Virus record (IMG/VR): IMGVR_UViG_3300035698_000901
Location: 1 to 30,185 of that record
DNA length: 30,185 nt
Origin: a virus
Strand: one strand, 5' to 3'
Shown: positions 18,228-24,789 of the stretch, piece after piece
Layout: the number at the start of each line of letters is the position of its first letter
Position numbering within the stretch: the first letter of the stretch is position 1
Made by a program: the position numbers and the translations under genes
The notes under the pieces: model-generated
The model's input: the letters and a program-made list of their open reading frames with translations, nothing else
The model's database searches: none
Told to the model about the DNA's origin: nothing

Positions 18228-18410
18228 TTACACATCCTTCCGTGTGGTTTCTATTTGTTGCAAATCAACATCTTTGCCGAACATTTTTCTTGCTGCGGTT
18301 TTGGTCTTAAAAACTGCCAGACAACCAACAACTCCAAGACCACCTATTGGCCATTGGTGGCCATTAAATTCTACGTTCTTTTGAAGACTTAATGCTATAT
18401 ACGCTTTCAT
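18228..18410 (-). CDS. Small hypothetical protein
   Basis: This 60-residue protein starts MKAYIALSLQKNVEFN and contains a short glycine-valine segment (GGLGVVGCLAVFKTKTAARK). Its start overlaps the stop of the previous tiny gene by four bases, and the GAAGGTG before it is the coding tail of that gene. It does not carry the Leu-Lys-Gly-Gly tail of its neighbours and ends two bases before the secreted Arg-rich gene. The function is unknown. Confidence 0.5.
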   Translation of the reverse strand: MKAYIALSLQKNVEFNGHQWPIGGLGVVGCLAVFKTKTAARKMFGKDVDLQQIETTRKDV

Positions 18411-18667
18411 TTTTCACCTTCTTTCAGGGATTTGTCGATTATACGTGCCGCATCATTAGTGACACAATGTTGTCCAGATTTATATTGACCGTGTATTATG
18501 CCCCATAATTTTCGTGTTTCAGTTAAAGCTGTCCTCAGTGTGTCATTCTTAGTTTGGAGTTGTTTAATTTTAATGTCATCCGCCATTGCCTCGGCATCAT
18601 AACCAAGTATCACTAATTCGATTACGCCACTTAAAGCTTCAATAGCCGTGTTTATTTGTTTACTCAT
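18407..18667 (-). CDS. Tiny-gene cassette member 5 (QLQ coiled coil)
   Basis: This 86-residue protein starts MSKQINTAIEALSG and contains KIKQLQTKNDTLRTAL, closely matching the KQIN start and KQLQTKNNEL segment of cassette member 1 (19530-19811). It ends SLKEGEK, a variant of the shared Leu-Lys-Gly-Gly-x-Lys tail. Start and stop overlap both neighbours by four bases (ATGA). The protein is likely an oligomerising helix bundle. The function is unknown. It is a diverged paralogue of member 1 rather than an independent gene. Confidence 0.62.
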   Translation of the reverse strand: MSKQINTAIEALSGVIELVILGYDAEAMADDIKIKQLQTKNDTLRTALTETRKLWGIIHGQYKSGQHCVTNDAARIIDKSLKEGEK

Positions 18668-18981
18668 TTTCCACCGCCCTTCAGGGCTTGTTTAAGTGCA
18701 TCTTTAACAGTATGACCTTGACCTATTACTCTATCATGTGGTTTTGTTTGGTAATGCTCAATCACTTTCCACAAGATGTCAAGGTCATCCCCACCAGTAG
18801 GGGCATCTTCACATCTTAAATCCCAATTATTGTCCTCAAGCTGAAAATACATGTCATTCTCGGCTTGGAGTTGCTCGATAATACGAATAGCCGTATCACC
18901 TGCTCCCTCGCTTTTCGACGGTTCATCTTCGATATTACCCATAATATAATCTGATAAAATATCTATTTGTGCTTTACTCAT
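18664..18981 (-). CDS. Tiny-gene cassette member 4
   Basis: This 105-residue acidic protein has the coiled-coil phrase AIRIIEQLQAENDMYFQL in the middle and the shared tail ALKQALKGGGK at the end. Its N terminus (MSKAQIDILSDYIMGNI) is unlike the others. The segment DDLDILWKVIEHYQTKP separates the coiled coil from the tail. Four-base ATGA overlaps join it to both neighbours. No known domain is recognised. The modular layout (variable head, QLQ helix, variable segment, fixed tail) is the main feature. Confidence 0.62.
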   Translation of the reverse strand: MSKAQIDILSDYIMGNIEDEPSKSEGAGDTAIRIIEQLQAENDMYFQLEDNNWDLRCEDAPTGGDDLDILWKVIEHYQTKPHDRVIGQGHTVKDALKQALKGGGK

Positions 18982-19265
18982 TTTACACCCCCTTTCAGGG
19001 CTTCATTGTAAGTGTTAATCCATTTGCGTAAGGGCTGGAAGACTACTAATGCCTTATATAGTAATCGCTCAACCTTTTTACTTGTGCTGCAACCGCTGTA
19101 AACAGAACCAATATAAGTCAATCCATCTTTTGCTGATAATATTAGTTCTTTCAGCCTCTCATTCTCGTCTTGGAGCTGCGAGACTTGCTTTTCAAGGAAC
19201 GTATAACAAATTATACATACTTCATCACATTCAATATGTTTTCCACAAATATCACATTTAAACAT
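18978..19265 (-). CDS. Tiny-gene cassette member 3, zinc-finger type
   Basis: This 95-residue protein starts MFKCDICGKHIECDEVCIIC: Cys pairs 4/7 and 17/20 could bind zinc. A coiled coil follows (LEKQVSQLQDENERLKEL), then a helical part and the shared tail NEALKGGVK. I chose the ATG at 19263-19265; a GTG three codons earlier lies in the ribosome site. The gene is coupled to both neighbours. The zinc-finger head plus coiled coil suggests an adapter that binds nucleic acid or protein as an oligomer. The function is unknown. Confidence 0.62.
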   Translation of the reverse strand: MFKCDICGKHIECDEVCIICYTFLEKQVSQLQDENERLKELILSAKDGLTYIGSVYSGCSTSKKVERLLYKALVVFQPLRKWINTYNEALKGGVK

Positions 19266-19266
19266 T

Positions 19267-19533
19267 TCACTCACTTCCTTTCAGGGCTTTTAAAATCTTC
19301 TCATTAGTTTTTTTTATGCCTGCCATTAGAGAGCCTCGGTTGGCTGCTGACTGTTCGTTTTTTTCTGCTTTTGCTATTATTATCATTTTATGCAGTCTAC
19401 GACCAATTAAGGACGAGTTAAGAGTTTTTGGGTCAAGAATGTAACAGAGTTGCGGGTTATGCCATGTCATTGAGTCAGCAAAAGCAAGTGCTATTTCTTC
19501 TTCATTTTTAGACATGTCACTTTCGATACTCAT
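19267..19533 (-). CDS. Tiny-gene cassette member 2
   Basis: This 88-residue protein begins MSIESDMSKNEEEIALAF and ends KILKALKGSE, a shorter form of the shared tail. It lacks a clear QLQ segment but has a long helix with RRLHKMIIIAKAEKNEQ. The middle part includes WHNPQLCYILDPKTL. The start overlaps the previous stop by four bases. It belongs to the cassette by its tail and position, and its body differs from the others. No function is recognised. Confidence 0.58.
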   Translation of the reverse strand: MSIESDMSKNEEEIALAFADSMTWHNPQLCYILDPKTLNSSLIGRRLHKMIIIAKAEKNEQSAANRGSLMAGIKKTNEKILKALKGSE

Positions 19534-19811
19534 TTTTCCCCGCCTTCCAGGACTTTTTTAATCTCTTGTTTAACACAATAACACCATTGACAAGGTTCAC
19601 AATCACCATTTGGTGGCACAGCATAACTACCAAAACCACCACAATTAGGACATTTAGCTACACTCAACAAACCTATTAACTCGTTATTTTTGGTTTGGAG
19701 CTGTTTGATTTCTTTTGCTGCTTCAGAAATCAAATTGGCCATATCTGTTGGGCCATAATAATCTATACCTGCATTTATTTGTTTTACCATGCTATCTCGC
19801 ACTATTCCCAT
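19530..19811 (-). CDS. Tiny-gene cassette member 1, Cys-rich
   Basis: This 93-residue protein starts MGIVRDSMVKQINAGIDYYG (ATG at 19809-19811 with AAAGGG upstream). It has the coiled-coil segment EIKQLQTKNNELIGLL, then a cysteine cluster (KCPNCGGFGSY and CEPCQWCYC) resembling a treble-clef or Lar-like zinc site, then the shared tail KKVLEGGEK. The KQIN and QLQTKN phrases match member 5, so they are paralogues. A 22-base repeat lies about 50 bases upstream of its start. It may be a small regulator or anti-restriction protein; this is inference. Confidence 0.62.
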   Translation of the reverse strand: MGIVRDSMVKQINAGIDYYGPTDMANLISEAAKEIKQLQTKNNELIGLLSVAKCPNCGGFGSYAVPPNGDCEPCQWCYCVKQEIKKVLEGGEK

Positions 19812-19859: not shown

Positions 19860-19881
19860 CCACCGACTCATACCTTGTTAG
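19860..19881 (-). repeat. Leader repeat, copy 3
   Basis: Third copy of the repeat AACAAGRTATGAGTCGGTGG (minus strand), with one mismatch to the other two. It starts seven bases after the stop of the 147-residue gene and lies 49 bases upstream of the next start. It is followed, as in copy 2, by a second conserved block (GGG-GGCATCG). See copies at 20365-20384 and 20997-21018. Confidence 0.8.
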
Positions 19882-20364: not shown

Positions 20365-20384
20365 CCACCGACTCATATCTTGTT
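20365..20384 (-). repeat. Leader repeat, copy 2
   Basis: Exact copy of AACAAGATATGAGTCGGTGG on the minus strand, 33 bases before the start of the 147-residue gene. It is followed by AGGGTGGCATCGGC, which matches the block after copy 3 (TAGGGCGGCATCG) with small differences, so the repeated unit is about 33 bases. Confidence 0.85.
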
Positions 20385-20414: not shown

Positions 20415-20636
20415 TTAGTGACCGTCACCGTAACCGTCACCGTAACCGTAACCGCCACCGTCACCGCCACCGTCACCGTAACCGTAACCGTTACCGTCAC
20501 CGTTACCGTCACCGTAACCGTAACCGTAACCGCCACCGTCACCGCCACCGTCACCGTAACCGCCACCGTAACCGTCACCGTAACCGTAACCTAACGACGT
20601 AAATGTTAAGTCGAAATTTATAGTTCGTTTTTCCAC
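20415..20636 (-). CDS. Gly/Tyr/Asp hexanucleotide-repeat protein
   Basis: This 73-residue protein begins at a GTG (20634-20636) with GAGGA seven bases before it: VEKRTINFDLTFTSLGYGYG. From about residue 15 it consists only of Gly, Tyr, Asp and a few Asn residues in GYGDG and GGGDGG units, to the terminal His. The DNA is a run of hexamers of the type GGTNNC, so the low complexity is present at both DNA and protein level. It overlaps the upstream gene by 19 bases. Such sequences are aggregation-prone or calcium-binding-like and mutate quickly by slippage. Reading the other strand would give poly(Thr-Val), which lacks a ribosome site. Confidence 0.55.
   Translation of the reverse strand: MEKRTINFDLTFTSLGYGYGDGYGGGYGDGGGDGGGYGYGYGDGNGDGNGYGYGDGGGDGGGYGYGDGYGDGH
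20418..20591. repeat. Hexanucleotide tandem repeat, about 29 units
   Basis: On the plus strand the unit is CCGTMA/CCGYCA (mainly CCGTAA, CCGTCA, CCGCCA, CCGTTA). The variants are arranged in a higher-order pattern: a block GTAACCGCCACCGTCACCGC occurs near 20449 and again near 20526, so a roughly 77-base segment was duplicated. Every unit keeps the reading frame of the Gly-rich protein. Confidence 0.9.
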
Positions 20637-20947
20637 TTTGATTCCTCGCAATCTATCGTAAGCACAACAGTTAGGTAATCAAACTGCACCAAGCCGTGAG
20701 TCTTATCAAGTTTTGTATCGCTGGTCGGGCCACCAAGAGCAATCTCACCCAATCCTTTTGTTGTTCCCCATTTACGGATATTGGCAGCATTGTGTAGCTT
20801 GCAATCAGAACCATTTCTTTCAAATCTCCCAACCATCACCCATCCACGCTGGAGAACTACAATTTTTGTATCTCCAACTACAGATAGCACCGATGACTTT
20901 CGCACATACTCAACATTATCAATTCTAATGGTTTCTGGTTTACTCAT
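20618..20947 (-). CDS. Hypothetical protein
   Basis: This 109-residue protein starts MSKPETIRIDNVEYVRKS (ATG 20945-20947, AAGGA upstream). It has beta-strand regions (TKIVVLQRGWVMVGRFE) and a Gly-rich segment (KGLGEIALGGPTSDTK), and ends in VQFDYLTVVLTIDCEE. The pattern resembles small conserved phage proteins of unknown function that carry one mixed alpha/beta domain. Repeat copy 1 lies about 50 bases upstream. No catalytic residues are evident. Confidence 0.6.
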   Translation of the reverse strand: MSKPETIRIDNVEYVRKSSVLSVVGDTKIVVLQRGWVMVGRFERNGSDCKLHNAANIRKWGTTKGLGEIALGGPTSDTKLDKTHGLVQFDYLTVVLTIDCEESKWKNEL

Positions 20948-20996: not shown

Positions 20997-21018
20997 CCAC
21001 CGACTCATATCTTGTTAG
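20997..21018 (-). repeat. Leader repeat, copy 1
   Basis: The minus strand reads CTAACAAGATATGAGTCGGTGG. It overlaps the last codons and the TGA stop of the 53-residue zinc protein gene (AACAAGATATGA) and lies about 50 bases before the next start. Copies 2 and 3 share 20 and 21 of these bases. Confidence 0.85.
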
Positions 21019-24553: not shown

Positions 24554-24789
24554 TATTCACCCTCCGCTTGGAGTTGATATTTTACGCCGTACTGGTTCCC
24601 GCAGGCTTTATCCCATGCCTCCTGTGTTTCCGGGCCATACTTACCGTCAGCCTTAACGCCGAGCCTACGCTGTATATCTTGCAGGCTTGGAATGTCGTTG
24701 CTAACTTGTGGCTCATCAAAAAAACTAAGCAGGGTGATTAACATCAAAACGCCGATAATAATTCCTACCACTGAATCTTTCATTTTCAT
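24553..24789 (-). CDS. Membrane-anchored peptidoglycan-binding mini-protein
   Basis: This 78-residue protein has an N-terminal transmembrane helix (VVGIIIGVLMLITLLSFF, about residues 7-24) and one peptidoglycan-binding repeat (SLQDIQRRLGVKADGKYGPE followed by TQEAWDKACG). This repeat is typical of endolysins and spore cortex enzymes, but no catalytic domain is attached. The periplasmic or outer-surface anchor could act in lysis, in superinfection exclusion, or as a spanin-like helper. AGAAAGGA precedes the ATG and lies directly after the U-run of the structured element. Confidence 0.78.
   Translation of the reverse strand: MKMKDSVVGIIIGVLMLITLLSFFDEPQVSNDIPSLQDIQRRLGVKADGKYGPETQEAWDKACGNQYGVKYQLQAEGE

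What the first reader, a model, noticed from the sequence alone, without database searches (positions are those of the whole stretch)
18407..19811. Array of five tiny genes with a shared tail that encodes the next ribosome site
Five consecutive overlapping genes end in Leu-(Lys/Glu)-(Gly/Glu)-(Gly/Ser)-x-Lys, written in DNA as CTGAAAGGNGG-x-AAAATGA. The AAAGGNGG is at the right distance to be the Shine-Dalgarno site of the next gene. Several also share a QLQ coiled-coil segment (QLQTKN, EQLQAEN, QLQDENE), while heads and middle parts differ. Members 1 and 5 are clear paralogues (KQIN, KQLQTKN). This looks like a modular duplication machine in which the protein tail is a by-product of, or a constraint from, translational coupling. 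The coiled coils could let the members hetero-oligomerise.
Basis: partly seen in the sequence, partly recalled or inferred. Interest (0 to 1): 0.65.

Follow-up and report, generated by a model that had tools for sequence, protein, structure and literature searches.

The report
Phage gene array with copied ribosome-site junctions
Five small phage genes in a row end in nearly the same DNA because each gene's end holds the ribosome landing site for the next gene, and that boundary, with one internal stretch, seems to have been copied along the row while the genes themselves differ; smaller cases occur in other phages, so it points to one simple way in which phages may pick up new small genes.

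Summary
Five small genes (A-E, minus strand 19811-18407) of an uncultivated tailed-phage contig, lying between a putative small-terminase gene and terL, end in L-(K/E)-(G/E)-(G/S)-x. The tail is the read-out of an unusually strong Shine-Dalgarno site for the next gene, mostly through ATGA overlaps. The same DNA signal gives the same tail on unrelated genes in 17 other phage gene families, and in another frame gives ERR/ERW tails, so the signal is nucleotide-level.

But the sharing exceeds what a ribosome site needs. CTG at codon -6 occurs in 5/5 here and in 7/505 other junctions. A 20-nt internal segment (QLQxxN) with rare codons is shared by A, C, D and E. Bodies are otherwise unrelated, except that A and E also share an N-terminus. 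Gene D is a mosaic joined next to that segment. A related phage lacks the array at the same locus, but there too a boundary is copied, read in a different frame. Copied boundaries recur elsewhere (13/836 adjacent pairs versus 8/3613 non-adjacent).

Best reading: serial gene gain or replacement using gene boundaries as recombination connectors. One two-gene precedent is published (phage Island3). Function and hetero-oligomerisation are untested.

The parts
19530..19811 (-). gene A (93 aa): KQIN head, QLQTKN segment, CxxCxGxG/CxxC cysteine body, tail VLEGGEK
   Evidence: ORF and SD at 19811
19267..19533 (-). gene B (88 aa): no QLQ segment, tail ALKGSE
   Evidence: ORF; no similarity to A, C, D, E outside the junction
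18978..19265 (-). gene C (95 aa): CxxC..CxxC N-terminus, QLQDEN segment, tail ALKGGVK
   Evidence: ORF; ATG 1 nt after B's stop
18664..18981 (-). gene D (105 aa): EPSKSEGAGDTAI head (2-40), QLQAEN segment, Vibrio-phage-like body (48-101), tail ALKGGGK
18407..18667 (-). gene E (86 aa): KQIN head, QLQTKN segment, tail SLKEGEK
   Evidence: ORF; related to A over head and segment
18228..18410 (-). gene F (60 aa): downstream gene started by E's tail; no QLQ, no LKGG tail
19531..19552 (-). junction A>B: TCCTGGAAGGCGGGGAAAAATG
   Evidence: aSD duplex -11.2 kcal/mol
19263..19286 (-). junction B>C: CCCTGAAAGGAAGTGAGTGAAATG
   Evidence: -13.3 kcal/mol
18979..19000 (-). junction C>D: CCCTGAAAGGGGGTGTAAAATG
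   Evidence: -18.5 kcal/mol
18665..18686 (-). junction D>E: CCCTGAAGGGCGGTGGAAAATG
   Evidence: -15.3 kcal/mol
18408..18429 (-). junction E>F: CCCTGAAAGAAGGTGAAAAATG
   Evidence: -13.0 kcal/mol
19683..19703 (-). QLQ segment DNA in A: CAGCTCCAAACCAAAAATAAC
19158..19178 (-). QLQ segment DNA in C: CAGCTCCAAGACGAGAATGAG
18853..18873 (-). QLQ segment DNA in D: CAACTCCAAGCCGAGAATGAC
18542..18562 (-). QLQ segment DNA in E: CAACTCCAAACTAAGAATGAC

Best explanation
A translationally coupled operon of accessory phage genes in the variable gap between a putative small-terminase gene and terL. Each gene's last seven codons hold an extended Shine-Dalgarno site (GAAAGGNGGTG) for the next gene, so a terminating ribosome can restart at once; the LKGGxK tail is the amino-acid read-out of that site in the frame set by the ATGA overlap. 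The boundary itself (CCCTGAAAGGNGGTG..AAAATGAGTAAA) and the internal QLQ segment were copied along the array by local duplication or recombination, while heads and bodies were replaced or brought in from other phages. Boundary and QLQ segment would act as connectors that let a new gene be inserted without breaking coupling. Shown by sequence: SD tails, shared boundary and segment DNA, mosaic D, absence of the array in a relative. Inferred: recombination as the copying process, its order, and actual coupling in the cell.
For: Strong SD at all five junctions. Same DNA signal on 17 unrelated families as LKGGxK and on 6 in the other frame as ERR/ERW-x-K. Boundary shared beyond the SD: CTG at codon -6 in 5/5 versus 7/505, upstream 7-mer 86% versus 28%, exact blocks of 13 and 12 nt between neighbours. 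QLQ segment DNA shared with rare CTC codon in A, C, D, E. D joins a Gordonia-phage-like head to a Vibrio-phage-like body at QLQAEN; the same head carries other bodies elsewhere. The relative L172 has no array at this locus and its own copied boundary, read in two frames. Adjacent junctions share 12 nt or more in 13/836 versus 8/3613 non-adjacent pairs. Published two-gene precedent Island3/Brujita (PMC3029335).
Against: No near relative with a different number of members was found, so gain and loss were not watched directly; L172 is distant (portal 56%). Many comparison loci were fetched because they carry an LKGG junction, some copied-boundary hits are low-complexity (L064, L065), and two of three isolated phages showed none. 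Coupling and expression are untested; the host, and so its 16S tail, is unknown.
Confidence: 0.65

Rival explanations
1. Convergence only: unrelated small genes were packed with ATGA overlaps, selection for one host-optimal ribosome site made the ends look alike, and the coils are convergent helices.
For: LKGGxK arises on many unrelated genes from the same signal. Ala-Leu before Gly-Gly is a plausible helix end and ALKGG recurs in other phages. Bodies are largely unrelated.
Against: CTG at codon -6 and the CCC before it do not pair with 16S RNA and are rare elsewhere (7/505). Codons, not only residues, are shared in the QLQ segment (about 1.6e-4 given the residues). Other -4 junctions of the same contig lack the block.
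Confidence: 0.2
2. Plain tandem duplication of one ancestral gene (head, coil, tail), followed by such strong divergence that only boundary and coil remain recognisable.
For: A and E are related over N-terminus and QLQ segment. Tandem paralogues with SD tails exist in another phage, L084.
Against: D's head and body each have separate outside relatives. Synonymous codons survive in segment and boundary while the rest is unrecognisable. B shares only the boundary.
Confidence: 0.15
3. The conserved block is a regulatory element: a small hairpin or a bound factor controls access to each ribosome site, and selection for this keeps the junctions alike.
For: Conservation extends beyond the SD; CCCT can pair with AGGG in some junctions, and shuffling the upstream bases weakens the A>B hairpin (p=0.007). 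Known SASs are repeated SD-containing elements with conserved flanks (PMC3203893).
Against: The hairpin is not stronger than in other junctions for B>C and E>F, and upstream shuffling is non-significant for four of five. The element is confined to this array, not spread over the genome like SASs.
Confidence: 0.08

Closest known systems
Mycobacteriophage Island3 genes 67/68 versus Brujita (Pope et al. 2011, PMC3029335)
   Same: Two adjacent genes share about 60 bp at their 3' ends (18 C-terminal residues) though gp68 otherwise has no homologues; a near-identical phage has one copy and lacks gene 68, pointing to recombination at the shared end.
   Different: One pair, about 50-60 bp; here five boundaries in a row, 12-22 nt, each carrying the ribosome site of the next gene, plus a second shared segment inside four of the genes. 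The single-copy near relative is missing here.
Start-associated sequences (SAS) of Cluster K mycobacteriophages (PMC3203893)
   Same: Repeated 13-bp element containing the SD, a few bp before start codons of genes of different families, conserved beyond what rRNA pairing explains.
   Different: SASs are spread over the right half of the genome with their own consensus; this element is limited to one array and is part of the upstream coding sequence.
Termination-reinitiation at ATGA/TGATG gene overlaps (Huber et al. 2019, 2023; PMC6728339, PMC10666635)
   Same: SD of the downstream gene lies in the 3' end of the upstream gene; short overlaps.
   Different: That literature does not address repeated, near-identical boundaries along an array.
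Mobile regulatory cassettes / promoter-stem-loop elements of T4-type phages (Arbiol et al. 2010; Comeau et al. 2014; titles seen in reference lists only; papers not held)
   Same: From memory: repeated regulatory sequence between small genes serves as homology for gene shuffling.
   Different: From memory: those elements are intergenic promoter-terminator units, not translated gene ends with an SD.

Membership tests
Translationally coupled overlapping genes | Start codon overlaps or closely follows the upstream stop (-8 to +10 nt) | tested here: met
   Four -4 ATGA overlaps and one +1 spacing
Translationally coupled overlapping genes | SD of the downstream gene inside the upstream gene | tested here: met
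   -11.2 to -18.5 kcal/mol against a generic 16S tail
Translationally coupled overlapping genes | Downstream translation depends on upstream translation | not testable with these tools
   needs a reporter assay
Start-associated sequences (Cluster K) | Repeated SD-containing element at starts of genes of different families, conserved beyond rRNA pairing | tested here: met
   CCCTG upstream of SD shared by five junctions with differing proteins
Start-associated sequences (Cluster K) | Consensus GGGATAGGAGCCC and genome-wide distribution | tested here: not met
   Different sequence, confined to five junctions of one array
Genes with shared 3' ends (Island3 67/68 type) | Adjacent genes share 3'-terminal DNA while bodies are unrelated | tested here: met
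Genes with shared 3' ends (Island3 67/68 type) | Near-identical phage with a single copy and one gene fewer | tested here: inconclusive
   No near relative found; the distant relative L172 lacks the array
Tandem paralogue family | Homology along the whole length of all members | tested here: not met
   Only boundary and QLQ segment, plus A/E N-terminus
Known Pfam/PHROG/NCBIfam families | Match above the curated cut-off (Pfam, NCBIfam) or a clear profile match (PHROGs) | tested here: not met
   No convincing hits for A-F; best is D to phrog_20553 at E=0.0046 over residues 5-42

The most novel reading that the evidence does not exclude
Phages commonly gain small genes as cassettes flanked by copies of a translated boundary: the last codons of the upstream gene, carrying the ribosome site and start of the next. 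Recombination at such boundaries inserts or swaps a gene while keeping it coupled, so 'same tail, different body' neighbours are footprints of recent gene gain, and the window shows a five-step series with a second connector inside the genes.
Probability: 0.3. Interest if true: 0.72.

Novelty: new variant of a known kind. Interest (0 to 1): 0.5.

Why it matters
[quoted passage not shown] A boundary that is both a coding end and a ribosome site, copied serially, is a concrete candidate connector that can be scanned for in any phage genome. It also warns annotators that shared C-termini in neighbouring phage proteins need not mean protein homology.

Tried and rejected
Close relatives of A, C, D and E by back-translated peptide scans of viral contigs: none; B was not scanned there. 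tblastn of all five in 50,697 phage records: only D gives clear partial hits. Known protein families: none convincing. SD-sequestering hairpin at all junctions: not supported. QLQ DNA as a widespread motif: no, one further site in 1.75 Mb, in L187; phage DNA searches gave only chance-level hits. Coil DNA of D versus L187 being more conserved than the head: 6/8 versus 11/22 identical codons, too few to claim. Structure prediction: E mean pLDDT 61.5, D 56.7, mostly helical, not used for a fold search. E and C in 13 related or module-sharing viral records: nothing. Rfam: nothing. Promoters/terminators: no excess over shuffles. Host assignment by terL in genomes: only distant hits, mostly on contigs of one Ignavibacteriae MAG, inconclusive.

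Full report
What is there. The window is a 30,185-base viral contig of the IMG/VR collection, a tailed phage with most genes on the minus strand. The five genes lie between a putative small-terminase gene (ORF 21738-21310; best PHROG matches are DNA-binding protein and terminase small subunit, all weak) and terL (17661-16237). In order of transcription they are A 19811-19530, B 19533-19267, C 19265-18978, D 18981-18664 and E 18667-18407; F (18410-18228) follows.

Check of the observation. The tails read VLEGGEK, ALKGSE, ALKGGVK, ALKGGGK and SLKEGEK. Four starts (B, D, E, F) are ATGA overlaps; C most likely starts at an ATG 1 nt after the stop of B. Against a generic 16S tail the five junctions give -11.2 to -18.5 kcal/mol, four of them stronger than any other start examined in the window, and they rank in the top 0 to 17% of 406 other phage ATGA junctions. 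A itself starts from an ordinary intergenic SD, and F, the last gene started this way, does not carry the tail. So the tail follows the boundary, not the protein family.

The tail is nucleotide-level. Spacers of 1 and 4 create an in-frame stop in the upstream gene, so only 2 and 3 can belong to overlapping genes. Spacer 3 gives LKGGxK on 17 unrelated gene families by my count of the listed tails, and spacer 2 gives ERR-x-K, ERW-x-K or the like on 6. In -4 junctions generally, glycine is raised at positions -4 and -3 against isolated gene ends.

But the boundary is shared beyond the ribosome site. CTG at codon -6 occurs in 7 of 505 -4 junctions of other contigs (junctions matching the search pattern left out) and in all five here. 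The 7 nt upstream of the SD are 86% identical among the array's four ATGA junctions, against about 28% for other junction pairs. Neighbouring array junctions share exact blocks of 13 nt (AAGCCCTGAAAGG) and 12 nt (AAAATGAGTAAA). Two other -4 junctions in this contig (starts at 23486 and 7770) do not carry the block. An SD-hiding hairpin CCCT..AGGG was considered and is not supported across the set.

The second shared element. A, C, D and E contain a segment CARCTCCAARNCNARAATRA (repeat family D4). Its leucine is CTC in all four, although CTC is 8% of leucine codons in this contig. Given the residues, identical codons at L, the second Q and N have a probability of about 1.6e-4 (product of the values; post hoc). 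With tails removed, DNA comparison exceeds all 500 codon shuffles for A-E and C-D, and D-E gives p=0.008; protein comparison does so only for A-E. Thus DNA likeness sits in the segment and the boundary, while heads and bodies differ, except that A and E also share the KQIN N-terminus.

Gene D is a mosaic. Residues 2-40 are 61% identical to an internal domain of large Gordonia-phage proteins, and residues 48-101 match a separate 78-aa Vibrio-phage protein (37% identity; the database E-value of that hit was only 0.06). The joint is at QLQAEN. The same head occurs in further phage contigs with other bodies. In one (L187, an 87-kb contig) it is 79% identical and followed by QLQSKND written with the same CAACTCCAA codons but another body. 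In another (L194) head and coil are followed by CxxCxGxG motifs like that in A.

Gain and loss at this locus. The relative L172 (portal 56% identical) has a homologue of the putative small terminase, terL and portal in the same order, but only 1.1 kb and other small genes in between, and no array. It too has a copied boundary, TGGAAAGCGAGGT..GAATGA, at two successive genes. The first copy is read as VESEVVE and the second, in another frame, as IWKAR (the second gene is an unannotated ORF). This is an independent case of boundary copying without conservation of the peptide.

How general is it. In 149 non-redundant loci, adjacent short-distance junctions share an exact block of 12 nt or more in 13 of 836 pairs, against 8 of 3613 non-adjacent pairs in the same contigs and 6 of 1672 interior windows of the adjacent genes (Fisher p 1.5e-5 and 0.0018). 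In L200, L199, L062, L169, L172, L116 and L108 the neighbouring bodies are unrelated by shuffle test (the L169 middle/downstream pair is borderline, p=0.035); L084 is a true tandem paralogue case and L123 has a paralogous pair. Of three isolated phages tested, Vibrio phage 1.103.O shows a 17-nt copy on both sides of its small gene gp30; TM4 and Felix O1 show none between adjacent genes. Caveats: many loci were fetched for carrying an LKGG junction, junctions were called from ORFs rather than annotation, and L064 and L065 hits are low-complexity.

Mechanism proposed. Terminating ribosomes restart at the strong SD in each tail (established for overlapping genes: PMC6728339, PMC10666635). The boundary is then under double use, as coding end and ribosome site, and supplies short homology. 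A gene arriving with, or recombining at, such a boundary is inserted in frame with its coupling intact, leaving two copies of the boundary. The QLQ segment may serve similarly between head and body. The recombination half of this is inference from the pattern. The direct precedent is Island3/Brujita, where adjacent genes 67 and 68 share about 60 bp at their 3' ends, gp68 otherwise having no homologues, and a near-identical phage has one copy and one gene fewer (PMC3029335). Start-associated sequences of Cluster K phages are the closest regulatory analogue (PMC3203893).

The coils. The segment I/V-x-x-L-x-x-x-N-x-x-L would suit a short parallel dimer with a buried asparagine (own knowledge of leucine zippers); D departs from it at the last leucine. 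Overlapping gene pairs are enriched for heteromeric partners in cells (PMC10666635). No tool here tested interaction, and single-chain models are low confidence. Hetero-oligomerisation stays open.

Verdict. A real and non-random feature: a serial, five-gene case of copied coding boundaries in a phage accessory-gene spot. The tail itself is ordinary; its copying together with an internal segment across otherwise largely unrelated genes is the unusual part.

Noticed in passing
19860-19879, 20365-20384, 20997-21016 (-): A second repeated junction-like element, AACAAGRTATGAGTCGGTGG, three exact copies, upstream of gene A and of the two genes before it; at 20997 it forms the in-frame end (..ANKI*) of a small gene with an ATGA, elsewhere it is intergenic and would start short ORFs (MSRW..). 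Absent from shuffles.
   Followed up: partly
20415-20651 (-): ORF made largely of a Gly/Tyr/Asp-rich tandem repeat (YGDGYGGG..), 6- and 36-nt DNA periods.
   Followed up: no
24557-24576 (-): CAACTCCAAGCGGAGGGTGA, within 3 mismatches of D's QLQ segment, forms the SD-bearing tail of another small gene (..QLQAEGE), outside the array.
   Followed up: no
L203 20342-20497 (Vibrio phage 1.103.O, gp30): 51-aa annotated gene flanked on both sides by the same 17-nt boundary GAGGTCGCAGCGTAATG, just before the neck protein gene.
   Followed up: partly
L200 2931-3122 and L199 3678-3926: Neighbouring unrelated small genes with 23-nt identical SD boundaries (tails TEGDTQ and EAEGRK); both loci also carry a head module related to that of gene D.
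   Followed up: partly
20618-20947 (-): Sub-threshold match to Pfam DUF6948 (E=1.2e-4, 22.6 bits, cut-off 27).
   Followed up: no
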